In this document: positions 1,351-63,972 of the stretch, piece by piece | How positions within the stretch are numbered: position 1 is the stretch's first letter | Layout: the number at the start of each line of letters is the position of its first letter | DNA from: Dryomyza anilis | Lineage: Eukaryota > Arthropoda > Insecta > Diptera > Dryomyzidae | Reading direction: 5' to 3' | Assembly (NCBI GenBank): GCA_951804985.1 | Contig: OX638136.1 | Span: 5,645,852-5,709,851, forward strand | Length of the DNA: 64,000 nucleotides | The notes under the pieces: model-generated | What the model saw: the letters and a program-made list of their open reading frames with translations, nothing else | Told to the model about the DNA's origin: nothing | The model's database searches: none | Program-made: the position numbers and the translations under genes

Positions 1351-2025
1351 AATTCTCAATACTATAAATCGGTATTGACATAGCTAGAAACCAGATTAAT
1401 ACGGAGAAACACAATTCCATGTGTTTTTAATAAAAAATGAATCAGAAAAACCCAGATTAACCATTGATGATACTTATTTTATTTGTAAATGTGCTTGCAG
1501 GGTTGGCTTACAATAACTCAATTAGAATGTTTTATTAAAAAACATTAAAACGTCTCAAAAATCATTTCAAATTAATATTATAACCTACCACCTCTCAAGG
1601 TCGTTTCAACTCTCTATGTTTACCATTATTAATATTACAGCCTACCACATCTCAAGGACATAACAATTCACCATAATTTTAAATTTGTAAGATTCACAAA
1701 GTAATATTGATGTAACATGCTTTCCCCCCCACATACTGGTTGACCAAAAAAATATAAAAAAAAAAATATATATTCATTAGAAACCTAAAAGGCGCTTGAA
1801 GTAAAAATTATTTCATTGGGCGAGAAAACCTTTAAGAGAGACAATTAATTAATTATAGAGACACATAAAGTAAAAAAATATATATATGCACAAAACGACA
1901 CTGAGAATAGAACTCATCTCGTATTCACCATGTTTTTTTAAAAAATTATAATAAAATTTTTTAAGTATGTGTAATCGTGTAGGTTTATATACATCTTTAA
2001 TATTCAATTATATTAAAGACGGGCT

Positions 2026-2073
2026 TCCCAAGAAACGTTTTTCGTCCGATGCCACTGGACTCATCAGTTGGGA
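2026..2073 (-). ncRNA. Hammerhead ribozyme motif, PLE-1 unit A
   Basis: Read on the minus strand, the 48 nt contain every hammerhead element in order. Stem I is TCCCAA pairing with TTGGGA (6 bp). Core CTGATGA follows, then stem II GTCC/GGAC with a 9-nt loop, core GAAA, and a very short helix III (within AAACGTTT) ending in C at the predicted cleavage site (TTTC then TTGGGA). Hammerheads with a minimal helix III are known from Penelope-like elements and retrozymes, and tend to act as dimers. The RT of this unit is on the + strand, so the motif is antisense to it. The fold is seen in the sequence; activity is inferred. Confidence 0.85.
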
Positions 2074-2479
2074 TTTTTTTAAAAAAATATATATAAATTT
2101 AGAAATAATTTAGAATTAATTAGAATCAAATTATATTTATTACCATAAATTGCTGTAAATATAAAAAACAATATCACTAGAATCATAATCAATCAAAACT
2201 TATGATCGATTTTCTTGAAACATTTCCGTGATTCCTCAGAATCTTACTCATACCACTTTACTGCCTTTATATATATTTTCTCATACATATATATATATAC
2301 ATAAAAATAAATATATATATATATGACAAGAATGATAAAAGGACGGTATTTATCTTATGGTTTGTTAATAAGTCATTATTTTACAGACGATTCCTTGAAA
2401 AAACAATGCACACAAAAAATACTTTAATATTCAAAAATTATTGGCACTCCAAAAATACACACTAATTTCCTACTGACAT

Positions 2480-3010
2480 TTTCAAAAATATATTTCAGTA
2501 TTCAAAAATAGCTGGCAATCCTTTTTTTTAAATATAGCTGGTATTTTAAAGAATATACATATTAATTTCCTACTGACATTTTCCAAAAGAATATTTCAAT
2601 ATTCAGAAATAGCTGGCAAACTTATTTTTTTAAAAAATAGCTGGCAATCTTATTTTTTTAAAAAAACGGACAGAACACAAACTACCCTGTTGACTTTTCT
2701 CAAAAAACGCACATAATTTTATGAACTTATCACAACTGCGGGAAAAACCTTCTCGTCAATGAAAACAAAACTATTAGTATTCAAAAGTAGCTGGCAATCC
2801 TATTTTTTAAAAAATATACATATTAATTTCCTACTGACATTTTCCAAAAAAATATTCCAATATTCAGTAAACTTATTATTTAAAAAAAAAAAAAGCTGGC
2901 AATCTTATTTTTTTAAAAAAACAAACAGAACACAAATTACCTGGCAATTTTATTTCTATAAAAAAACACAAATTACCTGGCAATCTTATTTTTTTAAAAA
3001 AGAAACAGAA
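2480..3010 (+). repeat. AGCTGGCAATC minisatellite, unit A
   Basis: Irregular tandem repeats based on 'agctggcaatcttatttt' followed by a T6-A6 block. They are interspersed with 'acagaacacaaattacctgg' and 'tcctactgacattttccaaa' sub-repeats. Unit lengths vary from about 30 to 60 bp. The same field is present in units B and C, so it is part of the element, downstream of the hammerhead motif. Confidence 0.75.
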
Positions 3011-3251
3011 CACAAATTACCTTGTTTACTTTTTTTACTGGAACACTCAGGAACTAACACACCAAAACACTTTTAACACTATTTTTTTAAAAACTAACCG
3101 TTTATTAAAAACTTTTTAAACATTTTAAAAACCGCACATAATTTTTGTGAACTTATCGCAACTACAGAAAAAACCTTCTCTTCAATGAAAACAAAAACTA
3201 TTAGTAAAAACACATGATACACATTAAGCATACTATGTTGTTTTTTATTTT

Positions 3252-6009
3252 TCTCAAGCTTTAACTATACAGTAATAATAAGATATTTATTTCTTTCAAA
3301 AAGTATTACAGTACTCAATTTGTATTATACTCATCCTAATGTACTGATGAACTCCTATAAAAGTACTCAAATTGTATTATACTCATCATAATGTACTCAT
3401 GAGCTCATATCAAGTACTCAAAATCATAACTTAACAATTCGAGACCATCCCTGTTTTTGCACCACCCCTACAACATCCTTACGTATAGCACACATTTAAG
3501 AATGACGTATAATGTAATAAATGAAAAAAACGTATACTGCAACAAGTAGTCATTTACAACAAATGGTCATTTGACACTTACGAATATGCATATAAAGGGA
3601 ATACGCAATCTAACAAGAAACCGAAATCAATTAGTGTCATCTTACAAAATCTATTGTTTTAATTAAGTTTTTACCATTTATCCCACAAACAATGGCATTC
3701 AATGTTCATAAAAAACAATCTGCATTAAAATATGGATTTAAGTGAGTTCTAAAAAATAAAGTAAAAGCGCATCCTAATGATATAATCGGTCAAAAAAAGT
3801 TGTGGCATATTAACACAGCAAATTACCTAGAAAAAATATACAAGAAAATTGCATAATCGGTCAACAAAAGTTGTGGCATATTTACATATCAATTGAAATT
3901 TTCTTAAAAAATGTATAAAGAGATTCTCCCACAAATGTTTTCGGTAAAAAGAACAGTCTGCATAAAATAAAAGCGTATATATGAATGTATCCACATCATG
4001 GATCCGGTAGAAAGAAATTGTAGCAAAATTACAAGGCAATTTTTGATTGCTAAGTGCGGTAAATGAAACCAGCAGGTGTCCAAGTGGAACAAGTGGGTGC
4101 CCTTTTTTTTGTAATAAAAGGTGTTTGTTGGCAAACAAATTTTTTATATATATAATTCAAGATTAATATCAAAATTTTAAAATTTTCCTAAACATTTTTC
4201 AAAAAACTAGGGAACTTCGGCACATATATCCAAAATTATAAAATATTTTCGATTCAAGATTAAAAAAAAAAGTTTGTTTTATCAATGACTAATTTTAGCG
4301 GGTTATTTCGTAAAATCCCATATCCGAAATAAATGGGAATATCAGGTTTCTTATATGAATTAAATCAAGTGGCAATATTGTCTATTTCCATATTTTCAAA
4401 AGCCAAGGCTATTTTTTATTAAAGTAGGCGATTTTAACCAAAAATTCAAAAAATAGCTTCACTAAGCACCATATTCTCACCAATACAACAAAAAATGAGA
4501 GAAAAACACACACATACTCTCATATATAACCACTGGGCATATCAAAAAGAGTGTATGGTATATGTGTGTGGCTGTTTAAAAGCAAACTCTATATAGCTCA
4601 GTGTTTCCGGCTTCTTCCATACAGTATCATTGAGTTTGCAACTTTAAAACGTTATTGGCGCGCAAAAAAATAAAAGAACAAAAACCATTTATCTAAATAA
4701 TTCGAAAGCATATATATTACAAACTCGTAAAAATTACTAAATAGTGATAATTTGCACAAACAATTTTAATTTAATTATTACTAAAAATATATATTGAAAG
4801 AAATATAACATCCACTTGTACTACATACAAAAACTAAGGTAAATATAAACCAATGAACCTGCCAAATTGTTCAGCCTATTGGAGTGTGTGCAACATATTA
4901 ACTAGCCTCATACTAAGATAGTTATTTAAAAATCTTAAGCATTTAGATATTGATTAAGATATTGAAGATATGTTACAACCATTACTTATAGCTGAAAACT
5001 TAAGGCAATAAGAAAGATACGGAACTGTACATGTGTGTGCCAACTTGGCTAGTCCTTATTAAAAATCCAGTGTCATGAGTCCCTTGTGCGATTTTCTAAA
5101 AAAGTGTGCTAAAAAAATGAAGCAAAATAAAGCAAAATTAAGCAAATTAAGCAAAATTAAATATATCGATATTTATTTAGTACAGTTGCGGTTATTAAGT
5201 ATAGACGCCACGCTCAGGTGGTTCTTTAAGTCTTGCCATAAAAAAAAATGGTGACCATTTACCGGTCACCATCTTTATAGCTAAGGCTGTTCATTATATC
5301 CTAATAAAAACCCATTATTTAACAATATGTTTAGTTTCTCATATCCACCACCACATTGAGTATGGTGAGCAATAGTAAAAATGGGATATAATATAATGTA
5401 TCCTTCAACTCATCGAATGACTGAGGAATGTAATTGAGATTGTGAAAAACCATCTAGTTTGTACATCAACCACAGTATTAATAATAATAAAAATACTGGT
5501 TTGTGACAAATGGTTGTAATTGAAAAACAATGCACTATTCAATACAGAATATTATTCAAAAACCAATTTAAGCTAGAAAATGTAAAAAATAAAATTGCAG
5601 GCTATTTTATAGAAGAAAATTATGGGATAAAAACTTGAATAAAGTAAACAATGTCATAATATACTGGTAGTTATAAGTATAGAAATCCACTCAATTGGTA
5701 CAACTACCATAATATTGGTATACGAAATATAAATATTAATACGTAACAATAATATTGGTAATGAGTATAAACCAGAATAGCCTTGAAAAAATCGTATTTT
5801 TCACAAATAAGCTATAATTTGGCTAACAAATTTTGTCAAACTATGATTCTTTCATTCGTAATGGATATAAACCAGAATAACCTCGAAAAAATATTTTATT
5901 ATCACAAATAATCTATAATTTAGCTAACAAATTTCGTGAACATTAAATAATCATTCATAACCAGCGACTCTTTCCCAATCAAACAAAAACTCATGAATAC
6001 TTGTAATCC
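3252..6009 (+). other. Long PLE-1 leader without a convincing gene, unit A
   Basis: This block starts with 'caagctttaactatacag' and two GTACTCA repeats (3313-3421). It continues through AT-rich sequence shared with units B and C. It includes a roughly 240-bp segment (3895-4138) that appears three times in unit B. An ATG at 5075 opens a 95-codon frame in unit C (32504-32791) but is broken by indels in A and B, so I do not call a gene. A 'ctatatag' TATA-like site lies near 4590. No protein similarity is recognised. Confidence 0.5.
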
Positions 6010-8142: not shown

Positions 8143-10855
8143 CAATATCGATCATCTGAAGACAATGATGACTGTATTGTGGGTTCACCACTTAATCAAA
8201 AGACTATGGAGGATGTACTTAAAAATGTCAATCCTCAAAATTTTACTGACGTTACTATTATTGCTATAACTCACGAAGAGAGTATTCCAAGTCCAGCAAA
8301 TAAATCTGGAGTTCCCAGGGGTGTGATTATTAATAGTGACGAAATGGACTCTATATTAAATGATCTGATTATTAATGATAACGAATCTAATCCAATAATC
8401 AACACTACCAACAACAAAACAAATCTTTTGATTAACACCAATATTGATCTAAGAAGCACATCAATCAACATGAATAATGGGATTGTTAATGATATACATG
8501 ATGGGATTATCAATGATATATCGAGTTATATAACTGTTGCTAAATCAACTCTGCATAATGAGCCATCAACTATGCCAGATTTTATGGATTCTACCGGGGT
8601 TCAATTACCTGTTACTCCTTCTATAGTACTTACCCTTGCAAATTCCTGGTGGTTTCGTAAATTTAACTACTCTAGAAATCTAAAATAATGTGTCTACCCT
8701 GTTGAGTTGGGGTCCAAATTTTGTCCCACCTCATACTCCCACTTTACTGGATACTTTGAATTATGTGAATTATATAGGGAATTCGATGCTTTTTAATAAT
8801 TTTGACCCAGACATATCGTTTAGGGAATTAGTCGCTGTATATTATAACCGTCTCAACCAGGTATTAATATCTAAAAAAGATACTAGTATTGATCTCATGA
8901 CACGATGTGTTCTAAAAATGTTGCGTGACACCAAAGAATATTTCCGTAAAAATCCCACTATTTGTATTGTACAGGCAGACAAAGGAAAAAGTACTACTAT
9001 AATGTTTAAAACTGATTACCGTCAAAAAATGGATGACTGGATCAATGGTTGTCTTCGTGTAGGTACTTATTTAGAAATAGGCGATGATTTTTCCACAATC
9101 CTACTGCAAATAAAATAACGATTCAAATATCTACGTAGTCAATTAAGTCGACATTTCAATACTTCTCAATCAGTTCCCTATCCTTTTAAAATTTATAAAC
9201 TATTATTAAGTTTTAGTGATACAAACGATAAACTAGTTAAACTCCCCTATCTATATGATACTGTAAAATATCATAAAGATGGCCAACCATGTCGACCAAT
9301 ATGTGGAACTATTCCCTGGTATAGTTATCCATCACAAAAAATTATTTCGAACGTTCTGAGGGGTATCTTGTCCAGTATGTTATTACCCAACAATGTGGTA
9401 AATATTGATAATGTGGTTTATGAGGTTCATGATATATTATTATGTTCACAATATGAATTCGTAAAATACGATATAAAGGACATGTATACAAACATGAACA
9501 TATCTGATATATACGATTGTATATCGAGGATGACTACCACACCATGGTTTCAGAAGTATTGTCCAATTCCCCCTAATTTATTATTACAATGTATGAGATT
9601 CTCAATGGATCAGGCGAATAATTTCACCTACAATTCCCTCATATATAAACAAGTACGGGGATTACCACAAGGAGCGTGTGATTCCGGACTGTTAGCTACA
9701 ATATTATTGGATTATTTTATTCAATTACACTCAATTGAGTTATTTGAGCAAAACCAGGTAGTATTTTGGAAATAATATATGGACGATTTCCTATTATATT
9801 TGCCTAGCATCCAAATAGATAGTTTTAAAACATCCTTTGAGCATTTAACATCTTAACAATTGACTATAGATAGAGAGGAGGATTGTGAGTCAGGTCTGAA
9901 TAAGACGATATCTTTTTTAGATATTTTAATTTCCATATTTCCTCATAAAATATATACAAGTATGTATACAAAACCCACAGCTTCATACCGACTACATCAT
10001 TATTTATGTAATTATAAATTTTCTACTAAGGAAAACACAACAAACACAAAAAATTTTACAAAGATCTAATAACCGATTCTTAGTTGGAGACTTAGAATTC
10101 CTACGTGAACGAATTTATTACAATAATTATCCAGATATATTGATAAACAAATTATATCACAAAACTATAGAACTAGAAATAGAGAACATCAATAAGTTGT
10201 TAAAAACCTGTTTCCCAAAAACTAAATATGGTGACAAACCTATACATCATGTTGAACGTACAACCATTGATTTAGAATTGCGGCGATCTATATTATACAG
10301 GTATATTAGAAAAGAAGTGATATATAATCCACCTAAAGTGGAGGAGGTGTCTCAAGGACGATCACATGGTTATCAACGGGTCAGACCACCTATTTATTTT
10401 GTATGCGACACCTTTACAACAATTATACAGAAAATATTCCATGATTATCATCTAGGACAACCCTCATTTAATAAAGCTCCAAGTCTTTTCCAAGTATTAC
10501 ATATGTCTCTTTCGGATCCAGATCCTATTTCTACTCCCATAAACCAAACTTCTATCTATATAGTAGGTTGCGAAACTTGCAATATGCAATTTTTAATATC
10601 AGGTACTGGGACGCCTGTAGATCTGTTAAATCTGGTAATATCCGATGTGAGCACAGCACTATACGCACATTGCAAAAAGAATCACAACTAATGATTTTTA
10701 AAGGGATGTATACTGCCTTGGGTTTGCAGTGTGAAAACGTAGATCAATTATCTCAGATCCCAAAGTATATGTTAACCAGCTTAAACAATTCAATCAGAGC
10801 CTTGGTTGCTGCCAAACGTTTCACTACACAAAGTAATGATTATCTGTTTCTATAG
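8143..10855 (+). pseudogene. PLE-1 reverse transcriptase, unit A
   Basis: A Penelope-like RT, about 900 codons with lesions. In order: an Asn/Ile-rich N-terminus (8143-8640); the PLE hallmark NLTTLEI...LLSWGPNF (8660-8720); VQADKGKSTTIM (near 8970); LPYLYDTVKYHKDGQPCRPI (9247-9300); motif A KYDIKDMYTNM (9467-9500); motif B GLPQGACDSGLL (9658-9700); motif C YMDD (9776-9787); the FLDILIS...MYTKPT segment (9917-9980); then a long thumb/linker and a degenerate GIY-YIG-like end. The enzyme would copy element RNA into DNA in the nucleus. Lesions: 1-bp shift near 8630, TAA at 8681, 9116, 9773 (just before YMDD) and about 9854, a shift near 10035, and a shift near 10690. Non-functional. Confidence 0.85.
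10545..10691 (+). other. GIY-YIG-like C-terminal domain remnant, PLE-1 unit A
   Basis: Encodes TSIYIVGCETCNMQFLISGT ... ALYAHCKKNHN. It aligns with the PLE GIY-YIG endonuclease start, which typically has a hydrophobic strand, CxxC, YxG and later a His-containing end. CxxC and HCxxxH are kept as possible metal ligands. The second Tyr-Ile-Gly is FLI, and the catalytic Arg position reads Leu-Leu (VDLLNLV). The same pattern occurs in PLE-2. The domain is either catalytically dead or very unusual. Coding then shifts frame to GMYTALGLQCENVDQLSQIP (10704-10855), which PLE-2 continues in frame. Confidence 0.55.
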
Positions 10856-13517: not shown

Positions 13518-14126
13518 AATCGGTATTGACATAGCTAGAAACCAGATTAATACGGAGAAACACAATTCCATGTGTTTTTAATAAAAAATGAATCAAAAAA
13601 ACCCAGATTAACCATTGATGATACTAATTTTATTTGTAAATGTGCTTGCAGGGTTGGCTTACAATAACTCAATTAGAATGTTTTATTAAAAAACATTAAA
13701 ACGTCTCAAAAATCATTTCAAATTAATATTATAGCCTACCACCTCTCAAGGTCGTTTCAACTCTCTATGTTTTCCATTATTAATATTACAGCCTACCACA
13801 TCTCAAGGACATAACAATTCACCATAATTTTAAATTTGTAAGATTCACAAAGTAATATTGATGTAACATGCTTTCCCCCCATACTGGTGGTCCAAAAAAA
13901 TATAAAAAAATATATATTCATTAGAAACCTAAAAGGCGCTTGAAGTAAAAATTATTTCATTAGGCGAGAAAACCTTTAAGAGAGACAATTAATTAATTAT
14001 AGACACACCTAAGGTAAAAAAATATATATATGCACAAATATATATATAACTTATGATCGATTTTCTTGAAACATTTCCGTGATTCCTCAGAATCTTACTC
14101 ATACCACTTTACTGCCTTTATATATA

Positions 14127-23811: not shown

Positions 23812-25625
23812 CAATATCGATCATCTGAAGACAATGATGACTGTATTGTGGGTTCACCACTTAATCAAAAGACTATGGAGGATGTACTTAAAAATGTCAA
23901 TCCTCAAAATTTGACTGACGTTACTATTATTGATATAACTCATGAAGAGAGTATTCCAAGTCCAGCAAATAAATCTGGAGTTCCCAGGGGTGTGATTATT
24001 AATAGTGACGAAATGGACTCTATATTAAATGATCTGATTATTAATGATAACGAATCTAATCCAATAATCAACACTAACAACAACAAAACAAATCCTGTGA
24101 TTAACACCAATATTGATCTAAGAAGCACATCAATCAACATGAATAATGGGATTGTTAATGATATACATGATGGGATTATCAATGATATATCAAGTTATAT
24201 AACTGTTGCTAAATCAACTCTGCATAATGAGCCATCAACTATGCCAGATTTTATGGATTCTACCGGGGTTCAATTACCTGTTACTCCTTCTATAGTACTT
24301 ACCCTTGCAAATTCCTGGTGGTTTCGTAAATTTAACTACTCTAGAAATCTCAAATAATGTGTCTACCCTGTTGAGTTGGGGTCCAAATTTTGTCCCACCT
24401 CATACTCCCACTTTACTGGATACTTTGAATTATGTGAATTATATAGGCAATTCGATGCTTTTTAATAATTTTGACCCAGACATATTATTTAGGGAATTAG
24501 TCGCTGTATATTAAAACCGTCTCAAGCAGGTATTAATATCTAAAAAAAGATACTAGTATTGATCTCATGACACGATGTGTTCTAAAAATGTTGCGTGACA
24601 CCAAAGAATTTTTCCGTAAAAATCCCACTATTTGTATTGTACAGGCAGACAAAGGAAAAAGTACTACTATAATGTTTAAAACTGATTACCGTCAAAAAAT
24701 GGATGACTGGATCAATGGTTGTCTTCGTGTAGGTACTTATTTAGAAATAGGCGATGATTTTTCCACAATCCTACTACAAATAAAAAAAATGATTCAAATA
24801 TCTACGTAGTCAATTAATTCGACATTTCAATACTTCTCAATCAGTTCCCTATCCTTTTAAATTTTATAAACTATTATTAAATTTTAGTGATACAAACGAT
24901 AAACTAGTTAAACTCCCCTATCTATATGGTACTGTAAAATATCATAAAGATGGCCAACCATGTCGACCAATATGTGGAACTATTCCCTAGTATACTTATC
25001 CATTACAAAAAATTATTTCGAACGTTCTGAGGGGTATCTTGTCCAGTATATTATTACCCAACAATGTGGTAAATATTGATAATGTGGTTTATGAGGTTCA
25101 TGATATATTATTATGTTCACAATATGAATTCGTAAAATACGATATAAAGGACATGTATACAAACATGAACATATCTGATATATACGATTGTATATCGAGG
25201 ATGACTACCACACCATGGTTTCAGAAGCATTGTCCAATTCCCCCTAATTTATTATTACAATGTATGAGATTCTCAATGGATCAGGCGAATTATTTCACCT
25301 ACAATTCCCTCATATATAAACAAGTACGGGGATTACCACAAGGAGCGTGTGATTCCGGACTGTTAGCTACAATATTATTGGATTATTTTATTCAATTACA
25401 CTCAATTGAGTTATTTGAACAAAACCAGGTATACGCACATTGCAAAAAGAATCACAACTAATGATTTTTAAAGGGATGTATACTGCCTTGGGTTTGCAGT
25501 GTGAAAACGTAGATCAATTATCTCAGATCCCAAAGTATATGTTAACCAGCTTAAACAATTCAATCAGAGCCTTGGTTGCTGCCAAACGTTTCACTACACA
25601 AAGTAATGATTATCTGTTTCTATAG
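23812..25625 (+). pseudogene. PLE-1 reverse transcriptase, unit B, palm deleted
   Basis: Same architecture as unit A to motif B (GLPQGACDSGLL). Then 'caaaaccaggta' (25430) joins directly to 'tacgcacattgc', deleting about 0.9 kb, including YMDD, the FLD segment, the linker and the CxxC region. A two-base 'ta' microhomology is possible. It shares the 1-bp shift before NLTTLEI with A and C, but has TCA (24350) where they have TAA. It carries its own shifts (A-run at about 24780), a TAA at 24512 and a TAG at about 24987. Confidence 0.8.
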
Positions 25626-28914: not shown

Positions 28915-28962
28915 TCCCAAGAAACGTTTTTCGTCCGATGCCACTGGACTCATCAGTTGGGA
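28915..28962 (-). ncRNA. Hammerhead ribozyme motif, PLE-1 unit C
   Basis: Identical over all 48 nt to the copy at 2026-2073: same stem I (TCCCAA/TTGGGA), core CTGATGA and GAAA, stem II GTCC/GGAC, and C at the predicted cleavage site. It lies about 3.3 kb downstream of the unit B RT stop, on the strand opposite that RT. Unit B has no equivalent because the sequence from the 'tgcacaaa' position to 'acttatgatcg' is deleted near 14035. Confidence 0.85.
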
Positions 28963-34435: not shown

Positions 34436-36204
34436 AATTATTAATGATAACGAATCTAATCCAATAATCAACACTACCAACAACAAAACAAATCTTTTGA
34501 TTAACACCAATATTGATCTAAGAAGCACATCAATCAACATGAATAATGGGATTGTTAATGATATACATGATGGGATTATCAATGATATATCAAGTTATAT
34601 AACTGTTGCTAAATCAACTCTGCATAATGAGCCATCAACTATGCCAGATTTTATGGATTCTACCGGGGTTCAATTACCTGTTACTCCTTCTATAGTACTT
34701 ACCCTTGCAAATTCCTGGTGGTTTCGTAAATTTAACTACTCTAGAAATCTAAAATAATGTGTCTACCCTGTTGAGTTGGGGTCCAAATTTTGTCCCACCT
34801 CATACTCCCACTTTACTGGATACTTTGAATTATGTGAATTATATAGGGAATTCGATGCTTTTTAATAATTTTGACCCAGACATATCGTTTAGGGAATTAG
34901 TCGCTGTATATTATAACCGTCTCAACCAGGTATTAATATCTAAAAAAGATACTAGTATTGATCTCATGACACGATGTGTTCTAAAAATGTTGCGTGACAC
35001 CAAAGAATATTTCCGTAAAAATCCCACTATTTGTATTGTACAGGCAGACAAAGGAAAAAGTACTACTATAATGTATAAAACTAATTATCGTCAAAAAATG
35101 GATGACTTGATCAATGGTTGTCTTCGTGTAGGTACTTATTTAGAAATAGGCGATGATTTTTCCACAATCCTACTGCAAATAAAATAACGATTCAAATATC
35201 TACGTAGTCAATTAATTCGACATTTCAATACTTCTCAATCAGTTCCCTATCCTTTTAAAATTTATAAACTATTATTAAGTTTTAGTGATACAAACGATAA
35301 ACTAGTTAAACTCCCCTATCTATATGATACTGTAAAATATCATAAAGATGGCCAACCATGTCGACCAATATGTGGAACTATTCCCTGGTATAGTTATCCA
35401 TCACAAAAAATTATTTCGAACGTTCTGAGGGGTATCTTGTCCAGTATGTTATTACCCAACAATGTGGTAAATATTGATAATCTGGTTTATGAGGTTCATG
35501 ATATATTATTATGTTCACAATCTGAATTCGTAAAATACGATATAAAGGACATGTATACAAACATGAACATATCTGATATATACGATTGTATATCGAGGAT
35601 GACTACCACACCATGGTTTCAGAAGCATTGTCCAATTCCCCCTAATTTATTATTACAATGTATGAGATTCTCAATGGATCAGGCGAATTATTTCACCTAC
35701 AATTCCCTCATACATAAACAAGTACGGGGATTACCACAAGGAGCGTGTGATTCCGGACTGTTAGCTATAAGACGATATCTTTTTTAGATATTTTAATTTC
35801 CATATTTCCTCATAAAATATATACAAGTATGTATATATTTTATGCATATATTTTACCGACTACATCATTATTTAAGTAATTATAAATTTTCTACTAAGGA
35901 AAACACAATTATTAGTGATTTAAAAAAAAAATTACAAAGATCTAATAACCGATTCTTAGTTGGAGACTTAGAATTCCTACGTGAACGAATTTATTACAAT
36001 AATTATCCAGATATATTGATAAACAAATTATATCACAAAACTATAGAACTAGAAATGGAGAACATCAATAAGTTGTTAAAAACCTGTTTCCCAAAAACTA
36101 AATATGGTGACAATCCTATACATCATGTTGAACGTACAACCATTGATTTAGAATTGCGGCGATCTATATTATATAGGTATATTAGAAAAGAAGTGATATA
36201 TAAT
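34436..36204 (+). pseudogene. PLE-1 reverse transcriptase, unit C, truncated
   Basis: Begins inside the N-terminal exon, fused to the AT-rich leader near 34436. It keeps LLSWGPNF, QADKGK, the KYHKDGQPCRPI motif, motif A and most of motif B. A deletion at 35766 (after SGLLA) skips to the 'aagacgatatc' position, removing YMDD. The MYTKPT region is replaced by 'tatattttatgcatat' (35830). The linker (35850-36204) is open and better preserved than in A. It ends where homology to the array stops. It shares TAA codons at 34750 and 35185 with unit A. Confidence 0.8.
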
Positions 36205-45674: not shown

Positions 45675-47395
45675 TTGCGTGCTGACGTCGTGCCCGTACG
45701 GGCTGATTTGTGCATCCATAATATAACTGATATCATCAATGCACTAAATAAGGATACGACTCAAGCTTTGCGGAGTAGCTGCAACTTAAAACTGCACAGA
45801 ACAAAATGCACTGCAATTATTAGAAGAGTAATCAGCCCATCTTTGCGTGCAGAAATGCTTGCTGATATTGGTGAATCATTTTATTCATTAATAATTGATG
45901 AGTCCACGGACTTAAGTACGTCGAAGTATCATTAAGTATAGTTGTTGGTATAGGTACTGATGGTGCTAGCAATTTTTGATGCGTAAACAATTCAGTATAT
46001 ACGAAATGTAAAGATCATTCTCCAAACATTGTTTTGGTAAAGTGTATATGCCATAGTCTTCATTTATGTACATTTTATAGTAAAAGAAACGTACAATTGG
46101 TTCAAAAACAGCACATTAAGGAAACACAAATATGCGAATATTTATAGTTTAATAAATGGAGAAGACTCAAAAAACTTATATTTTATACAAATTTCATCAA
46201 CTCGATGGCTTTCGCGTTTTAATGCAGTTGATAGGATTTGTACTCAATATTTAAAGTTACAGACTTTTTTTGAAATTAATGCTAATAAAGAAAACTGTAG
46301 CCGCGGTAGCTCAGTGGTTAGTGCGTTGGACTGCGAGCCGAAAGGTCCCCTGTTCAAGCCTGGACTGGGGATAACAACATCTTTCATAGAAACATTTACA
46401 CATTAAGAAAACTGTTACACAGCTCAGTTATTATACCAGCCATTTAAAAATAAACTAATATTTCTGATTATATTTCTAATACTAATATTTCACAAATCAA
46501 TTTTTGAACCTATATTTTCATAGAGAAAAAGCTTACACGGAAATAAAAAAATTTATGTTAACTATTATTTCTAAAGTTATTGCAGAAGATGTTTTCCATA
46601 ATATTGATTTTAATATGTAGGTTTTACGTAATATAATAAACAATGAAAATAATTTTAAAACTGTGAACGATTTAACATTTAATGAGGAATTTCAAAATTA
46701 AATCGCAAAAGCTTCAAATGAAGTTAATATTATTAATTTAAAAATTGATTGTCAACATTTTATTCTCATTTTGATAGATGAACTAATTAAAAGACTCCCA
46801 TGTCAAATAGACATTTACAAAAATAGTTATATTTTATCTCCACGAAAATGCTTGTCATTTTAGAACTATGTTTGCTGAACTTCATCTCCATTTTTTGTTT
46901 GAATCGGAGAAAATATCAGCTGAAACGAAATACGATTCACTCCTTGCTATATCATGGAACACAATTTTTCAAAATAACATACCATCCGATAGCGAAGATT
47001 TTTGGCTAGAATCATATAAATTAAAAACTGCGGGAGGTGATAAAATGATAGGTAATATTTCGAAGCTGGCTTTGATTTTACTTTCATTACCGCACTCCAA
47101 CGCATTCGTTGAACGCGTTTTTTCGGTCATGAATTTGACCAAAGCCAAAATAAGAAACAAAATGATTTTGGAAACACTTACGTCAATAATTAGATTAAAA
47201 TGCTACGTAAAGGCGTATGATTTTTGTTGCAATTCACTACCTATTTCTGAAGGTATGCTTTTAAAATTTGATTCTTCTATATATGAGGAACATACTAGTG
47301 AGAAAGATTCCACAAACGATGATCTCTTAACTCTAAGAGAGTTTGATTTAGTACAAACATGTTTTTTTAATGGATATTTTAATAATGTTATTTAA
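45675..47395 (+). pseudogene. hAT-family transposase relic (ZBED/DUF4371-like)
   Basis: Decayed hAT-like transposase, N-terminus missing. Recognisable blocks in order: LKLHRTKCTAIIRRVI and SFYSLIIDESTDLSTSK (45790-45930), matching the 'SLIVDESTD' catalytic-core segment; GTDGASNF and VKCICHSLHLC (45957-46075); and the C-terminal dimerisation domain in 46868-47395, with LPHSNAFVERVFSVMNLTKA and KIRNKM. Frameshifts and stops separate the blocks, and a SINE interrupts the middle. Such proteins cut and join DNA with 8-bp target duplications, and this copy cannot. It ends at the left border of the PLE-2 inverted repeat. Confidence 0.8.
46299..46404 (+). mobile_element. Short tRNA-derived SINE inside the hAT relic
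   Basis: 106 bp flanked by the 11-bp direct repeat AAGAAAACTGT (46288-46298 and 46405-46415). It begins 'agccgcggtagctcagtgg', a good pol III A box, has an anticodon-arm-like 'gttggactgcgagccgaaag', and a B box-like 'tgttcaagcctgg' (46351-46363). The T and acceptor stems do not close, so this is not a working tRNA. After the tRNA-like head comes only about 34 bp of tail. Target duplication and tRNA head together indicate LINE-mobilised SINE insertion. Confidence 0.8.
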
Positions 47396-48140
47396 TTCAG
47401 TATTAAATTATATAGCCATATTACACTGAAAAATGAATATTATATTACAATTACAGCAATTTAGACATTGATTATATAAAATGAATTAATCTATCAAATA
47501 CTATCAAAAATCATCATAACCAATGTTTAATAAGCCTAAAACAACAAATACTCATAAATCAGGCAAGAAAATCAAACCATTTACAACAGCATAGTTAATA
47601 GTATAAAGCTAATAGCCATTAATTAAAAATATATATAAAAAAATATATGTAAAAAATATATGTAAAAAAATATAAAAAATGAATTTTATTATATGGGATT
47701 TTATATATAAAAAATATATATAAACCCCCCATAACCATTTACAAGAATCTATGTAATCTTTAAAAACTTTAAGACATATATATGCTGTATAAAATGAATT
47801 GTGTCCTACCTATTAAAAATAAAAATAAAAAACCATATGGTCCTAAAGTCCTGTGCCAAAATATAATCTCAGCACTACGTAATCAGTAAGAACATTTTAT
47901 GTAAATTGTCCAATAAATTTTATAAAAATGTATGCGTTGAAAAACACCAAACACAACAAACTACATAATCACCACATATCATCCCACAATCACCGGATGC
48001 ACAAACATATTTTAAACATCCCATATCAATTATAAACACACTTCTGTATAAATGTGTACCATACACCTTAAAACAAAAATAAATATAAAACCGTGAAGGT
48101 AATTAACGTCTTTAAACTTATATAATAAAAAGACGGGCCT

Positions 48141-48188
48141 CCCCAATAAACGTTTTTCATCCATTGCCAATGCAATCATCAGTTGGGA
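48141..48188 (-). ncRNA. Hammerhead ribozyme motif, PLE-2 left arm
   Basis: On the minus strand: stem I TCCCAA/TTGGGG (with a G-U pair), core CTGATGA, a stem II of six pairs (TGCATT with AATGGA around GGC) with one mismatch, core GAAA, the short AAACGTTT helix III, and A at the predicted cleavage site. Compared with the right arm, one base in stem II (G for C) breaks a pair. The first stem II pair is U-U where G-C is usual, so activity is doubtful. It is antisense to the + strand ORFs of this copy. Confidence 0.75.
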
Positions 48189-48997
48189 TTTATTATAAAT
48201 TATTAAAAACTTATATATTATTACTAATAATATATAGAAATATAAGTGCTCCAAAATATAGGATATATGAGTGTAATATTAAATATTAATATTACAATCC
48301 TTCAATATAATGGTATATAAACCAAATATATAAACATATAACAGAGCACCACGGGTTATATACCCAACCCACCACATACATATATGTCATAATACATAAT
48401 GTAACATACATATGTATTAAACAAATTATCAAACAAACACAAACATTTCCCACGACTTTAAATATGAATTAATATTAAATCAACACATCAAAATGATTAA
48501 GGTATACATAGTATAACCTTGACCAAATATAATAAACAAAATTTGAACACACCATTATAAGAATTATAACCCCTTCAACAATATGAACCAATAAATGTAT
48601 CAAAAAAAACACAAAAACACAAATTAAAACACACAGAAAATATATAAATATATATTACATACCCTTTCCATACACAATATAACTAACAAATTAATAATTA
48701 AAGGAAAACATATTACACATCACAACATAAATAACAAATCTATAACATTAATAAAGATTAAACAAACAAATTATTATAGATATACAAAGTATACTTGATA
48801 GAACTGATTATCTATAATTTTTTTATTAATAGCAAAAACAAAGATTACTAGATAAAAAATTCCAATAAAAATGACAAACAAAAAATACAATATAAGCTAG
48901 TATTTTCAACATATTAACAAGAAGAATATCTTCATAACAAATGAAATAGACAAGAGTACCACACAATCAGCATAATCTCTTGTTATTAAAATGCCCA

Positions 48998-50430
48998 CCA
49001 ACCAACAACCACCTGATAAGTTCAATATAAATGTACACATATATCAATCATAATTAGAAAACCTAACCAACCAGACATTAAATCATATTAAAGACTATGA
49101 ATCCAACATTAAAAACCAATTCTATTTTAACTTATTACATACCAATTGATCTACATTTATATCTACATCTAGACAAAATTGAAAAACCCTCGGTCCAACC
49201 CCTCATAGTTGTCAATTCAATTGACATTACTTCAAACAATGTTACTACATCCAATATAACAACATCATCCGGCATTGCATCATCCATACTGTTCAAAACC
49301 AACTCAAGATATAGCATCCCAATCAACTATTATCATCCAACAGCGCACTGCCAAGCTACAACCATAATTGGAGGAACAAACAATGTAAAAATATACATAA
49401 GGTATATCAAGCAGTGACAATGTTTTATCACACCTCATAGGTTTATATATCCCTAACAGAATATTGAACCAATGTCAGGGACGATGCTTCAACAAGCTGA
49501 TGTGCCTATAACAATATCAACAATAAGCCCAACTACGATGTCAAGGACGACGCCTTATTAATTACAACAGGCTGATGTGCCCAACATCAACATTTAAAAT
49601 TATATGGAACTTTACCAAGTAAAGACTATTGATGTATCCCCCATGATGTACTAAGAGCCAAACCATCACACCACGATGACAACTCATTAAGCGTTCTAGC
49701 TACTAATATAATCAACTATAATATTACCTGCCAACAAACAGTACTTAATAAACCAGGCTAACAACACAAACATCAGAGGTGTGCAACAAACCATCCACAT
49801 ACATCCATAAACTTACATCAATATTCATTGGTATACACAAATGTTCACCAACCATTAACCACCTGATAAGTACAATAAGAATGTACACACATATCAATCG
49901 TAAGTAGAAAGGACCAACCACCCAAACATTAACACATATTAAAACTATGAATCCAACACTAAAAACCATTCTATTTTAATTCTTTACATACCGATTGATC
50001 TACAACTACATCTGGACAACACTGAAAATCTCGGTCCTATATATTACACCAATCAATATAACAACATCATCCAGCATTGCATCACCCACGGTATTAAACA
50101 TCAACCCTAAACATAGCATAACAATTAACCACTTGTTAACTGCAATAGGCTGATGTACCCAACATTAGCATGCAAGCTGTATGGAACTATACCAAGTAAA
50201 AAACTATTGATGCATCCCCCTAAATTTATCAAGAGCCAAATACATTACAACCTGATGACAATTCATTAGACGTTCTAGCTGCTGATATATAATCAACTAC
50301 AATATTACCTGCCAGCCGACAGTGCTTAACAAACCAAACCAACAACAATATCATCAGGAGTACATAACAATCAGCCCACCTCAAATTCATCGGTATGCAT
50401 ATACAGGCATCCAACATTAGGATAGCATTC
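48998..50430 (+). repeat. Diverged tandem duplication in PLE-2
   Basis: Sequence from 48998 ('accaaccaacaaccacctga') recurs from 49848 ('accaaccattaaccacctga'), a period of about 850 bp. Both copies contain 'atgaatccaaca' and 'gttctagct' (49692 and 50271). The second copy is shorter by internal deletions. Divergence suggests the duplication is old. The right arm carries only the equivalent of the first copy. Confidence 0.7.
49097..49417 (+). CDS. Small hypothetical ORF in the PLE-2 left arm
   Basis: A 106-codon frame rich in Thr, Ser, Ile and Asn, e.g. IDITSNNVTTSNITTSSGIA. The inverted counterpart (57230-57457, minus strand) keeps the last 75 residues with few changes but lacks the start. 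No domain recognised; it may be non-coding. Confidence 0.2.
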   Translation: MNPTLKTNSILTYYIPIDLHLYLHLDKIEKPSVQPLIVVNSIDITSNNVTTSNITTSSGIASSILFKTNSRYSIPINYYHPTAHCQATTIIGGTNNVKIYIRYIKQ

Positions 50431-54004: not shown

Positions 54005-54380
54005 ATGGACAACTTCAAACACTTATTGGACGAGGATGAAGACATAATTATGCTCGTTGACCTACCTCATAAATATTAATTAGAAGATAATGAACAACCA
54101 AAAACTAGTAGACAACCAATTAATCGACATGAATCTTCACCAAAACTACCCAACATTCATCAACCAACATCAAAAGGAGAAGATAAATCTGGGTTGAAAC
54201 CAACAACAACCAGTTATAAATTACTCTGCTCATCAAGTGACAACATAGCATTAAAAAACTAATATGGTTCACCAAACTATCCCTATAGCACTACTGTTAC
54301 ATCTTATCCTGGTCCAAGCAACTTATTGAAGCGACGAGCATCTCCTCAATCAATTCAACAACCCATAAAACAATCAACCA
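54005..54380 (+). pseudogene. PLE-2 ORF1 (acidic N-terminus), interrupted
   Basis: Starts MDNFKHLLDEDEDIIMLVDL, closely similar in style to PLE-1 ORF1 (MDAFLSDDDEYILNA), and lies in the same place relative to the hammerhead motif. A TAA at 54077 and another near 54260 interrupt it. The same frame continues to LLKRRASPQSI, a basic patch comparable to SPKRRRLSSHL of PLE-1. The frame is then cut at about 54381 by a mini-me-like insertion. No known domain. Confidence 0.5.
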
Positions 54381-55083
54381 GTTGGGAAGGTCAGATCACA
54401 TGGGAAATTTTAAAGTAGGTGTAATTATGATAGTTAGGATTATCAAAATTATAGTCGGTCTAAGCCGACTATAAATACCATACACATATGTGTGGTTACC
54501 ATTCAAAGTGATATATCACCAGGGTATACGAATCCTGAAAATAACTACAAACATTCAATCGCTGAAGAATTTCCATTCATTTGATACCCATATTTACAAA
54601 GGGGTAGTTGTACCGAATTTCGATTTTTTTTTGTGAACCACAAGTCTTTTCGCCGGAAAACATTATTATCATGTATTTGAGCATGATATCAATATATATT
54701 TGACCAAAAAAGTTTACCTAAGCACGTATACATAAAAATTGATCTTTATATGTACATTTTATATGAGGTATTTGAACATAAGTGGTCGGATCATAGGTCA
54801 CAATGGACCGATCTCGCACATACAGCGTAGGTATATTAGTAATCTAAGTTATAAGTTTCATTTATCTAGCTTTTCAATTTTAAAAGTAGTAGGGATTTCA
54901 ACAGACAGACAGACAGACAGACAGACAGACGGACAGACAGACGGACATCGCTAAATCGACTCAGGAGGTCATGCTGATCAAGAATATATATACTTTTCCA
55001 TACCGGAGATGCTTCCTTCTGGGTGTTACAAACGGCGTACCAAACTGAATATACCCTTTCACTCTTAGTGTAGGGTATAAAAA
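54381..55083 (+). mobile_element. Mini-me/DINE-1-like element, copy 2
   Basis: Runs from 'gttgggaaggtcagatcaca' to 'gtgtagggtataaaaa'. It includes the palindrome 'tagtcggtctaagccgacta', a (GACA)n tract (54901-54946) and the core 'tgatcaagaatatatatact' (54976-54995). It is inserted in PLE-2 ORF1. There is no clear target duplication, which would suit a Helitron-related element. Confidence 0.75.
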
Positions 55084-55346
55084 TTAACAATGAGACTATC
55101 GGTAAATACACCAGTCATAACAGATTATTAACACCTTAAGACATTTCACAATCATTGTCAACACCACTATATATTATCTTTTTACTAAAAAGACTAAACA
55201 TCAAATATATATTAGTCCTACCATAAACCATGCAAAATACTCTCGCACAACAACACACTCTCGCACAACAACACAATAGCTGAATTAGCTAATGTAGACT
55301 CATACATAATCATATAGTAGCTAACTTTTATATGTATTAACCTGCT

Positions 55347-57050: not shown

Positions 57051-57051
57051 T

Positions 57052-59275
57052 AAATGTTGATGTTGGGCACATCAGTCTGTTGTAATTAATAAGGCGTCGT
57101 CCTTGAGATCGTAGTTTGGCTTATTGTTGATATTGTTATAGGCACATCAGCTTGTTGAAGCATCGTCCCTGACATTTGTTCAATATTCTGTTAGGGATAT
57201 ATATACCTATGAGGTGTGATAAAACATTGTCACTGCTTGATATACCTTATGTATATTTTTACATTGTTTGTTCCTCCAATTATGGTTGTAGCTTGGCAGT
57301 GCGCTGTTGGATGATAATTGTTGATTGGGATGCTATATCTTGAGTTGGTTTTGAACAGTATAGATGATGCAATGCCGGATGATGTTGTTATATTGGATGT
57401 AGTAAAATTGTTTGAAGTAATGTCAATTGAATTGCCAACTATGAGGGGTTTGGACAAGGTTTTTCAATTTTGTCTAGATGTAGATATAAATGTAGATCAA
57501 TTGGTATGTAATGAGTTAAAATAGAATTGGTTTTTCATGTTGGATTCATAGTCTTTAATATGATTTAATGTCTGGTTGGTTAGGTTTTCTAATTATGATT
57601 GATATATGTGTAAATTTATATTGAACTTATCAGGTGGTTGTTGGTTGGTGGGCATTTTAATAACAAGAGATTATGCTGATTGTGTGGTACTCTTGTCTAT
57701 TTCATTTGTTATGAAGATATTCTTCTTGTTAATATGTATTTTATATTGTATTTTTTGTTTCTCATTTTTATTGGAATTTTTTATCTAGTAATCTTTGTTT
57801 TTGCTATTAATAAAAAATGATAGATAATCAGTTCTATCAAGTATACTTTGTATATCTATAATAATTTGTTTGTTTAATCTTTATTAATGTTATAGATTTG
57901 TTATTTATGTTGTGATGTGTAATATGTTTTCCTTTAATTATTAATTTGTTAGTTATATTGTGTATGGAAAGGGTATGTAATATATATTTATATATCTTCT
58001 GTGTGTTTTAATTTGTGTTTTTGTGTTTTTTTTGGTACATTTATTGGTTCATATTGTTGAAGGGGTTATAATTCTTATAATGGTGTGTTTAAATTTTGTT
58101 TATTATGTTTGGTCAAGGTTATACTATGTATACCTTAATCATTTTGATGTGTTGATTTAATATTAATTCATATTTAAAGTCGTGGGAAATGTTTGTGTTT
58201 GTTTGATAATTTGTTTAATACATATGTATGTCACATTATGTATTATGACATATATGTATGTGGTGGGTTGGGTATATAACCCGTGGTGCTCTGTTATATG
58301 TTTATATATATGGTTTATATACCATTATATTAAAGGATTGTAATATTAATATTTAATATTACTCTCATATAACCTAGATTTTGGAGCACTTATATTTCTA
58401 TATATTATTAGTAATAATATATAAGTTTTTAATAATTTATAATAAAATCCCAACTGATGATTCCATTGGCAATGGATGAAAAACGTTTATTGGGGAGGCC
58501 CGTCTTTTTACTATATAAGTTTAAAGACGTTAATTACCTTCACGGTTTTATATTTATTTTTGTTTTAAGGTGTATGGTACACATTTATACAGAAGTGTGT
58601 TTATAATTGATATGGGATGTTTAAAATATGTTTGTGCATCCGGTGATTGTGGGATGATATGTGGTGATTATGTAGTTTGTTGGGAATACTAACAAGAATA
58701 TTTTATTCCTTGAGATTTATATAATTTGGTGTTTTTCAACACATACATTTTTATAAAATTTATTGGACAATTTACTTAAAATGTTCTTACTGATTACGTA
58801 GTGCTGAGATTATATTTTGGCACAGGACTTTAGGACCACATGGTTTTTTATTTTTATTTTTAATAGGTAGGACACAATTCATTTTATACAGCATATATAT
58901 GTCTTAAAATTTTAAATGTTAAATAGATTCTTGTAAATGGTTATGGGGGGTTTATATATATTTTTTATATATAAAATCCCATATAATTAAATTCATTTTT
59001 TATATTTTTTTACATATATTTTTTACATATATTTTTATATATATATTTTTAATTAATGGCTATTAGCTTTATACTATTAACTATGCTGTTGTAAATGGTT
59101 TGATTTTCTTGCCTGATTTATGAGTATTTGTTGTTTTAGGCTTATTAAACATTGGTTATGATGATTTTTGATAGTATTTGCTAGATTAATTCATTTTATA
59201 TAATCAATGTCTAAATTGCTGTAATTGTAATATAATATTCATTTTTCAGTGTAATATGGCTATATAATTTATTAC
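57052..59275 (-). repeat. PLE-2 inverted repeat, right arm
   Basis: Reverse-complement counterpart of 47399-49593. It holds the intact hammerhead motif at 58448-58495 (+) and the short frame 57230-57457 (-). It lies downstream of the minus-strand RT, about 2.9 kb past its end, the same spacing as in PLE-1. Small indels distinguish it from the left arm. Confidence 0.85.
58448..58495 (+). ncRNA. Hammerhead ribozyme motif, PLE-2 right arm
   Basis: Stem I TCCCAA/TTGGGG, core CTGATGA, stem II TCCATT/AATGGA (six pairs, GGC loop) after a U-U at the first position, core GAAA, short AAACGTTT helix III, and A at the predicted cleavage site. The RT of this copy is on the minus strand, so the motif is again antisense. 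Stem II has been remade relative to PLE-1 (GTCC/GGAC with a 9-nt loop) while the core is unchanged. Confidence 0.8.
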
Positions 59276-61756: not shown

Positions 61757-63972
61757 TAATTACATATGTAGAATTTGATATAAGGTTTTGGATTTATTGA
61801 ATGAGGGTTGACCTATACGATAATCTTTAAACATCTTATGTATTAGTGTTGAAAAATTTTCACAAATGTAGTATATAGGTGGTGTTATTGATTTATATGA
61901 TGGTTTTGGTTTATTTCTTTCTGTAGGTATTATTGTCATTAATAATAATTCTGGAGATAGTAGATTTGATCTGTATGTCTGTAATATATGTATCCGAGTG
62001 TTAATATTGTCATAGGTGGTTTCTACTATTTTGGTTTTAATTATTTGATTTTTATTGGAGGGTATACGGTATTTATCTAATCTAACTATTTCACTATGTA
62101 ATACTGAATTATAAATGTTGCTTATATATATGTCAGGGTTCCCATTGTAGTAAGTTTTTTGTTTAAATTCATCTAAATCTTGGATGAGGAATCTATCATT
62201 GGTTCTAACTAATATTTTTTTAACCTCACTTGTTACTGTTTGTTGTTTTGTAGATTGCTTATAGTTTGTTAAATAATGATGCATACGCAATGATGAAGTG
62301 GGTTTATGATACATACTGGTTAAGGTTATTTGTATATCTAAAAAGGTTATGATGCGTTCACCACTTTCATTTAGTTCTTCCTTATCAACCGTTAATTCTA
62401 AATTGGTCAAATATTCAAATGCATTTTTGAAGTTATTTATTTGTTCGGTTGGCATATATATGAAAAAATCATCTACATATTTGTACCAATATATAATTTG
62501 ATGACATGAGAATAATTCTATTTTATGTAATTGTAATAGATAATCTAATAGTATGGTTGCAAGTAATCCAGAATCACATGCGCCTTGCGGCAGCCCACGT
62601 ACTTGTTTGTATACTTCACCAATGTATGAAAAATAATTAGCTATTTCTAAAGAAAAGCGAAGACATTGCATTAACAAGGTTGTAGGTATAGGACATGAGT
62701 CAATGAACCAAGTGGTGTATGTCATTCGTAAAATACAATCATATATGTCACTTATGCTCATGTTTGTATACATGTCACGCACATCATATTTTATGAATTG
62801 ATAGTTAGGACAAACCACAATTTTGTGTAGTTCTAATACAATATGATTTATATTTGTTACATTATGTTTTGATAATACATTATGTTTGTCGCAATACTGT
62901 AGATATTATTTTTTGTAATGCATAACTATACCAATGTATGGTTCCACATATAGGACGACAAGGTTGACCTTCCTTATGATATTTTACTGTCCCATATAAA
63001 TAAGGTAATCGGATGTTATTATTATTAAATGTTAATAATAATTTATATATTTTCGAACAATATATGCTTGTTTTATTATTTAGTTTATGAGTTTGATATA
63101 TTTTTAATAATTGAGATCTAATACATTTGTATTGTGTTAATATTTTATGTTGTATGGGTTTAAAATCATTGGTCTGATGTATATATGTACCTACTTTTAC
63201 ACAATTTTCTATCCATTTGGACATTTTGTTGCGATAGTCATCTTTATACATGATAGTAGTTATTTTACCTTTATCGGCCTGCACCATATATATATATTAT
63301 CATATTGACGTAAGAATTTAGTTGTTCGTTGTAGCATTTTCAATATATGTTTGGTCATATGTTGATTTTTTGTGTTATTAATAATGTATTTAAACGATTA
63401 TAATATTTTGGTATTAATTCATGGAATAATATATCTGGGTCCATGTTTTGACAAGTCATGTTATGACCAACTTGCCTAATGTAGGTAATTGCATCTAATA
63501 AGGATGGTAATTCTGGTGGTATAAATGAGGGTCCCCAACTTAATAATGTTGATACTTCTATAGGAATTTCTAATGTTGTTAAATTTATAAAACCACGAGG
63601 GATGGCTAGAGGTGCAGTGGAGGGTGACAGAGGTATTTCAGTTTTACTTGCATCTAGAAAATCTGGTATTTCTTGTGGTTGGTTTATTGGTATGGTATTG
63701 TCTTCTTTAGTGCTTATGTTACTTAGGTTGGTCTGTATAGGTTTTAGATTGGTTGTATTCGTATTACTATTGTTTGTAGTATGATATATTGGTATTGATG
63801 TTTGTTGTAACTTTTGATTACTATGTGTATTTTCTATGGTCGGGGTTGCACAAGAATTGGATATAGTGTTTAAATGATTATTAGACTTGGTTTCATTGTT
63901 CAACTGGTCTATTTTGGTATAATCATTAGTGTATTGTGTGGTATTTTGGTTGTGTTCGTCTTTTGTTAAGGT
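61358..63972 (-). pseudogene. PLE-2 reverse transcriptase, nearly complete
   Basis: Minus-strand Penelope-like RT. The frame opens at 63972 after a 'caatcag' acceptor-like site. An Asn/Thr-rich N-terminus leads to FINLTTLEIPIEVSTLLSWG (PLE hallmark). A frameshift near 63355 precedes MTKHILKMLQRTTKFLRQ, then VQADKGK, LPYLYGTVKYHKEGQPCRPI, a second shift near 62880, and an uninterrupted 352-codon core (62818-61760). The core holds motif A KYDVRDMYTNM, motif B GLPQGACDSGLLATILLDY, motif C YWYKYVDDFF and FLDIQIT...MYHKPTSS. One TAA (61757-61759, after YQILHM) precedes a GIY-YIG-like C-terminus. Only three lesions are visible, so this family decayed more recently than PLE-1. Confidence 0.88.

What the first reader, a model, noticed from the sequence alone, without database searches (positions are those of the whole stretch)
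2026..2073. Hammerhead ribozyme antisense to the reverse transcriptase in PLE-1
A complete 48-nt hammerhead (6-bp stem I, CTGATGA, 4-bp stem II, GAAA, minimal helix III, C at the cleavage site) lies on the strand opposite the RT, identically in units A and C. Hammerheads with a short helix III are known in pseudo-LTRs of Penelope-like elements, where I understand them to be read with the element. An antisense placement would imply self-cleaving antisense transcripts, or a promoter geometry in which the ribozyme strand is the transposition intermediate.
Basis: partly seen in the sequence, partly recalled or inferred. Interest (0 to 1): 0.88.

Follow-up and report, generated by a model that had tools for sequence, protein, structure and literature searches.

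The report
Backwards hammerhead ribozymes in retroelement arrays
A small self-cutting RNA motif, which in a well-studied Penelope-like jumping gene lies in the reading direction, sits the opposite way round in copy after copy of a large family of repeats, so if it works it would cut antisense RNA rather than the message.

Summary
Rfam's type I hammerhead model hits 2026-2073 and 28915-28962, minus strand only (32.9 bits, cut-off 34). A descriptor scan finds only these two, and none in 150 shuffles. The reverse transcriptase (RT) is on the plus strand. "Antisense" means orientation only: the ribozyme lies about 6 kb before its own unit's RT; unit C's lies about 3.5 kb after unit B's RT. Unit B has lost it.

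The placement is systematic: of 94 hammerheads collected genome-wide, all 28 with an RT motif within 5 kb, and 42 of 43 within 10 kb, are antisense. It holds in several RT classes, and arrays that flip carry both along. Nine of 20 RT blocks show no hammerhead by these patterns.

Not shown: cleavage, antisense RNA, or which strand is retrotransposed. An apparent fixed copy end dissolved on checking. Catalytic bases are not spared among close copies, and covariation rests on one pair.

Best reading: a conserved antisense hammerhead of Penelope-like elements that can only cut antisense RNA. New variant of a known kind.

The parts
2026..2073 (-). Type I hammerhead ribozyme motif, unit A of the PLE-1 array (alpha class)
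   Evidence: Rfam RF00163, 32.9 bits; own model R1, 91.6 bits (built partly from this copy)
28915..28962 (-). Identical hammerhead, unit C
58448..58495 (+). Diverged (beta-class) hammerhead, antisense to the minus-strand RT of the second element (PLE-2); first pair of stem II is T.T and the cleavage-site base is A
   Evidence: 7 of 48 mismatches; model R1, 90.3 bits (built partly from this copy); not reported by Rfam up to E 5
48141..48188 (-). Beta-class hammerhead in the other arm of an inverted repeat (47398-49596 / 57051-59277)
1991..2020 (-). Hairpin drawn by eye just after the ribozyme (GTCTTTAATAT...ATATTAAAGAT)
   Evidence: sequence; alignments; not predicted by RNAalifold
1975..1983 (-). 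CCTACACGA, this copy's form of a motif, mostly CCT(T/A)CACGG, found after the ribozyme in the 12 sequences of alignment A4
   Evidence: not seen in the C6 copies L006 and L007
8041..8688 (+). N-terminal open frame before the RT, unit A
   Evidence: no reliable Pfam match
8684..9775 (+). RT region, unit A, in two open frames (8684-9118, 9119-9775); broken copy
9930..10691 (+). RT C-terminal region, unit A; no Pfam match
24991..25461 (+). RT region of unit B; its end lies about 3.5 kb before the unit C hammerhead
35188..35787 (+). RT region of unit C
14030..14060 (.). Junction in unit B where the hammerhead segment (unit A 1894-2197) is missing
61760..62818 (-). RT frame of the second element (PLE-2)
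   Evidence: RVT_1 22.3 bits, below its cut-off; 66% nucleotide identity to PLE-1 RT

Best explanation
The window lies in tandem arrays of Penelope-like retroelements whose non-coding part carries a minimal type I hammerhead on the strand opposite the RT. The RT message therefore contains only the inert complement. An RNA running antisense through an array would meet one ribozyme per intact unit and could be cut there, probably through paired ribozymes joined at the palindromic helix III (AAACGUUU). The likeliest effect is to chop antisense read-through RNA into unit-sized, uncapped pieces, which would limit long antisense or double-stranded RNA from the arrays. Shown: the motif, its orientation, its recurrence, and a core more alike between classes than its flanks. 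Inferred: cleavage, existence of the antisense RNA, and the benefit.
For: Rfam hammerhead hit on the minus strand only. 28 of 28 hammerheads within 5 kb of an RT motif, and 42 of 43 within 10 kb, are antisense; 11 of 11 array blocks that hold hammerheads are antisense by majority (47 counts against 2, one hammerhead being counted in two blocks). Antisense in alpha, beta, gamma and delta classes and in a diverged autosomal copy, L036. Model R1 finds no sense-strand hammerhead in L036, L040, L042, L044, L047 or L048, the six fetched loci with RT code beside a hammerhead. Ribozyme core 89% mean identity between six class representatives against 54-69% in the flanking bins. One stem I pair changes on both sides, C-G to G-C.
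Against: No RNA data. Among 53 close copies the catalytic sites are hit as often as others (6 changes in 9 sites against 28 in 39). Beta copies have lost the first stem II pair (T.T in 10 of 24 rows). Covariation is one pair: 324 of 500 shuffles do as well by number of pairs, though only 4 of 500 by cells and 3 of 500 by score. RNAalifold keeps stem I and part of stem II but pairs core bases with each other, as does the single-sequence fold. Wobble pairs do not tell which strand folds (10 G.U against 3 A.C cells, about 5 against 3 events by my count, with 18 other mismatches). The core was used to find the copies, which inflates its conservation. 46 of 86 RT motifs have no listed hammerhead within 10 kb.
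Confidence: 0.42

Rival explanations
1. Ambisense element: the ribozyme strand is the transposition RNA and the RT gene lies on the other strand. Downstream of the ribozyme, on its own strand, come a hairpin and an AC-containing motif (mostly CCTTCACGG), in the order reported for the Anolis element Poseidon, where reverse transcription starts in an AC-rich stem-loop downstream of the hammerhead.
For: The order hammerhead - hairpin (by eye) - CCTNCAC motif is seen in the 12 sequences of alignment A4; in the Anolis element the cut lies 26 nt and the RT start 111-118 nt into the ORF (PMC11167929).
Against: Only a resemblance, and the C6 copies L006 and L007 do not show the motif. No copy end at the motif or at the cleavage site could be shown; copies that seemed to end there are longer, decayed or interrupted copies.
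Confidence: 0.2
2. Passive relic: the ribozyme was turned round, or was inserted, in a common ancestor and is carried along without a role.
For: No depletion of catalytic changes among close copies; 46 of 86 RT motifs have no listed hammerhead within 10 kb (the list is a lower bound); unit B lost it.
Against: Core identity of 89% between class representatives although RT pieces of different classes are 48-66% identical at the protein level; a two-sided change in stem I. Both are weakened by the way the copies were found.
Confidence: 0.23
3. The conserved thing is the complementary structure in the RT-strand RNA (for instance an RT-binding fold), and hammerhead chemistry is incidental.
For: The stems can form on either strand; wobble counts do not exclude it.
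Against: The conserved letters are those of the hammerhead core on the minus strand, including CTGATGA and GAAA (the search pattern contained them).
Confidence: 0.08
4. A separate retrozyme-like element that inserted next to PLEs.
For: Unit B lacks a 304-nt piece; CAAAAC flanks that piece on both sides in unit A (read); 40 of 94 hammerheads have no RT motif within 25 kb.
Against: Alpha copies align across both edges of that piece; orientation to the RT is not random.
Confidence: 0.07

Closest known systems
Hammerheads of Penelope-like elements (Cervera & de la Pena 2014 and Lunse et al. 2017: known to me from citations and recall, texts not held; Poseidon of Anolis, PMC11167929: parts 1-2 of 4 and passages read)
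   Same: Minimal type I hammerhead with near-absent helix III, in tandemly arranged RT elements
   Different: In Poseidon the ribozyme overlaps the ORF start on the coding strand; here it is on the opposite strand and kilobases from the RT frame
Terminons (giant EN-deficient PLEs of rotifers; passages of PMC6431247)
   Same: PLE relatives with hammerheads, long units, tandem arrays
   Different: Their 3'-terminal hammerhead is reported next to reverse-complement telomeric repeats; I saw none by eye beside this one, but the telomere repeat of this host is not known to me
Metazoan retrozymes (passages of PMC7229834)
   Same: Type I hammerheads, proposed to be mobilised by PLEs
   Different: Those are 170-400 nt units giving circular RNAs; these lie in units of about 12-15 kb that carry RT genes
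Drosophila virilis Penelope (passages of PMC3136932)
   Same: Context only: sense and antisense siRNAs in about equal amounts, with a very weak antisense transcript signal
   Different: No hammerhead orientation is given in the passages seen

Membership tests
Type I hammerhead ribozyme (RF00163) | Covariance-model match | tested here: inconclusive
   32.9 bits against gathering 34, E 2.5e-4 in the window; of six loci only L044 and L048 are reported up to E 1
Type I hammerhead ribozyme (RF00163) | CUGANGA and GAAA core, stems I and II, UH cleavage site | tested here: met
   Alpha, gamma and delta sequences; beta lacks the first stem II pair
Type I hammerhead ribozyme (RF00163) | Self-cleavage | not testable with these tools
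   needs an in vitro assay
Penelope-like element | RT of the PLE/telomerase kind | tested here: inconclusive
   RVT_1 below its cut-off; no annotated protein relative; weak PDB matches only; structure model too poor; PLE-like thumb motif is recalled, not tested
Penelope-like element | GIY-YIG endonuclease (canonical PLEs) | tested here: not met
   No GIY-YIG match in window 9930-10691 up to E 0.01 or in L042 1648-2721 and 2380-2721 up to E 10; EN-deficient PLEs exist (PMC6431247), so this does not exclude a PLE
Penelope-like element | Tandem or partial tandem arrangement | tested here: met
   Units A, B, C; RT arrays on C7
Penelope-like element | Hammerhead read with the element (as in Poseidon) | tested here: not met
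   42 of 43 within 10 kb of an RT motif are antisense
Metazoan retrozyme | Stand-alone 170-400 nt tandem units with a hammerhead | tested here: not met
   In the window and L031-L050 ribozymes are kilobases apart, apart from one head-to-head pair in L039; the rest of the genome was seen only as positions
Terminon | 3' hammerhead next to telomeric repeats | tested here: inconclusive
   None seen by eye in the flanks aligned; host telomere repeat unknown, no search made

The most novel reading that the evidence does not exclude
An ambisense retroelement lineage: ribozyme and reverse-transcription start module on one strand, RT gene on the other, so that the antisense RNA, cut by its own hammerheads into unit lengths (linear or circular), is the transposition template or a dedicated antisense product.
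Probability: 0.2. Interest if true: 0.9.

Novelty: new variant of a known kind. Interest (0 to 1): 0.62.

Why it matters
The role of hammerheads in Penelope-like elements is described as unknown (passages of PMC7761336), and in the Anolis element mutating the ribozyme did not change insertion in vitro (PMC11167929). A lineage in which the ribozyme lies on the antisense strand separates two ideas: processing of the transposition RNA, which an antisense ribozyme cannot do for the RT-strand RNA, and action on antisense RNA. Stranded RNA-seq and a simple cleavage assay can settle it.

Tried and rejected
Fixed copy end: delta-class copies seemed to share an exact boundary (TCTGGATCG...) with truncation on the other side, which would have made the RT strand the template. 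A more sensitive comparison shows homology beyond that boundary (L034 with L047 from -130 to +1262 relative to the boundary; L051 with L052 from -223 to +59), and L032 also matches further downstream. L038's abrupt end is an unrelated repeat inserted at about +67 to +733. I dropped the claim. My notes still carry it.

Selection on catalysis among close copies: tested, not seen. Wobble test for the folding strand: inconclusive. Free energy: not unusual. Structure prediction of the RT piece: useless, mean pLDDT 40. Protein database: no hit at 1e-3 for one RT piece; for the alignment three short unnamed hits and one insignificant one. Genome search with the Rfam family found nothing at E 0.001 and its controls were silent too, so it says nothing. 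I set aside the mir-297, mir-3149, mir-1277 and mir-466 hits as TA/TG repeats. A looser genome scan for other hammerhead classes (CTGATGAGTCC...GGACGAAA) did not complete, so a sense-strand class elsewhere in this genome is not excluded. L031 seemed to put the ribozyme in a LINE 3' end (LINE by recalled motif); its (AAGT)n tail before the module suggests that the LINE landed there. The first form of the window scan timed out and was rewritten.

Class labels (alpha, beta, gamma, delta, a2) are mine, from the stem II/loop letters.

Full report
Observation. Minus strand 2073->2026 carries all parts of a type I hammerhead: stem I TCCCAA/TTGGGA, CTGATGA, stem II GTCC/GGAC with a 9-nt loop, GAAA, a very short helix III inside AAACGTTT, and the cleavage base C. 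Rfam finds it at 32.9 bits (cut-off 34; E 2.5e-4) there and at 28915-28962, minus strand only; nothing in the window reaches a gathering score. A descriptor scan gives these two and none in 150 dinucleotide shuffles. The free energy is ordinary and the minimum-energy fold is not the hammerhead fold. Two diverged copies sit at 58448-58495(+) and 48141-48188(-).

Context. Positions 1 to about 36,300 are three partly decayed tandem units with an RT on the plus strand (RVT_1 at 9119-9775, below its cut-off). A second element has its RT on the minus strand (61760-62818). Between the first array and the rest of the window, blastn (E 1e-8, low-complexity filter on) aligns RT pieces (66-67%) and a stretch of 98-139 nt around the hammerhead (76-81%); a more permissive search from 1500-3300 adds one 39-nt match. 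The unit C ribozyme lies about 3.5 kb past unit B's RT, the 58448 copy about 3.3 kb past the second element's RT, both antisense. The 48141 copy, in an inverted arm, is antisense to the nearer unit C RT and on the same strand as the second element's RT, 13.6 kb away. None overlaps an RT. Unit B lacks unit A's 1894-2197; alpha copies L035, L043 and L044 align across both edges, so I read unit B as a deletion rather than A and C as an insertion.

Genome-wide orientation. The pattern CAACTGATGAN{10,24}GAAAAACGTTT has 84 matches in the 656.6-Mb assembly and none in the reversed control; a 48-base pattern with up to 3 mismatches has 53 matches, none in the control, 10 of them new. RT motifs: 82 (one hit in the control) plus 4 of the second element's kind, one of these in the window: 86 in all. 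Of 94 hammerheads, 28 have an RT motif within 5 kb and all 28 are antisense; 43 have one within 10 kb, 42 antisense; 54 have one within 25 kb, 51 antisense; 40 have none. Two of the 3 same-strand cases (C7 3.985 and 3.994 Mb) lie where the gamma array reverses; the third (21.330 Mb) is 24 kb from its nearest listed RT. Of the 28, 25 lie 2.2-4.7 kb downstream of the RT motif and 3 upstream. Of 20 RT blocks on C7, 11 hold hammerheads within 12 kb, and all 11 are antisense by majority (47 counts against 2; one hammerhead, at 13.909 Mb, is counted in two neighbouring blocks of opposite strand). Nine blocks have none by these patterns, so the ribozyme is not universal or has drifted beyond them. 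Many copies within an array are duplicates, so the counts are not independent events. In the 20 fetched 10-kb loci, six have RT code beside a hammerhead in a clear order (L036, L040, L042, L044, L047, L048) and all six are antisense. L041 holds an N-terminal piece, antisense too; L039 lies where the array flips and has hammerheads of both strands.

Conservation. Between six class representatives the core (-38 to +10 around the cut) is 89% identical on average, neighbouring bins 54-69%. Caution: the copies were found by that core. Stem I has one pair with changes on both sides (C-G in 18, G-C in 4 of 24 rows); by number of such pairs 324 of 500 shuffles do as well, by cells 4 and by score 3 of 500. 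The beta class has T.T at the base of stem II and A at the cleavage site. After the ribozyme, on its strand, a hairpin can be drawn by eye, and a CCTNCAC motif follows in the 12 sequences of A4 (two rows, L050 and L031, differ from it at one of the first two letters), but not in the C6 copies L006 and L007. RNAalifold predicts neither this hairpin nor the full hammerhead: it keeps stem I and three pairs of stem II and pairs core bases with each other. Within the 53 close copies, changes fall on catalytic sites as often as elsewhere (6 in 9 sites, 28 in 39), as expected for decaying copies.

No sense-strand hammerhead found beside an RT. A covariance model built from 24 of these sequences gives 27 strong matches (68-92 bits) in the window and L031-L050, all of them copies already known, and five weak ones (10.6-16.3 bits). 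In the six loci with RT code beside a hammerhead none is on the RT strand. Rfam on those six loci reports hammerheads only in L044 and L048, antisense, and misses the other four up to E 1, so Rfam alone is not sensitive enough for absence. A looser genome scan did not complete.

Mechanism. In the Anolis Poseidon element the ribozyme lies on the coding strand across the ORF start, cuts only with protein in vitro, and mutating it does not change insertion (PMC11167929). Here the RT message carries the complement, so the ribozyme can only act on antisense RNA. I favour cutting of antisense read-through in arrays. The ambisense alternative is the bold one and is not excluded. I tried to read template polarity from copy ends and failed.

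Known or new. A review (passages of PMC7761336) calls the role of PLE hammerheads a mystery and places some of them in pseudo-LTRs. My searches of the held library list no paper whose title or abstract start describes antisense hammerheads in PLEs; the two primary papers on PLE hammerheads are not held, so novelty is provisional. Whether the element is a PLE in the strict sense was not settled.

Noticed in passing
G000 contig C7 (23.2 Mb; window at C7:5645852-5709851): 3.5% of the assembly holds 77 of 84 hammerhead matches and 83 of 86 RT motifs: strongly chromosome-restricted arrays, perhaps a sex or accessory chromosome (guess).
   Followed up: partly
window 47398-49596 and 57051-59277: Large inverted repeat, each arm with a beta-class hammerhead.
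   Followed up: partly
L031 (C1:66608000-66617999): LINE-like RT C-terminus with an (AAGT)n tail directly before a hammerhead module on the same strand, twice, 5.1 kb apart.
   Followed up: partly
L039 about 990-1300 (C7 3.985 Mb): Two gamma hammerheads on opposite strands within about 240 nt at the point where the array changes direction.
   Followed up: no
L034, L032, L047, L048, about 90 nt before the cleavage site: Conserved block TCTGGATCGTATTCGAATCC before the delta-class ribozyme (8 exact places in the genome); its end resembles a tRNA B box (recalled, not tested).
   Followed up: no
window 54372-55084 and 59497-60209; L036, L035, L038, L048, L049: A repeat of about 670 bp that interrupts the beta-class copy in L038 and recurs in several fetched loci.
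   Followed up: no
window 46868-47395: Open frame with a hAT transposase dimerisation domain.
   Followed up: no
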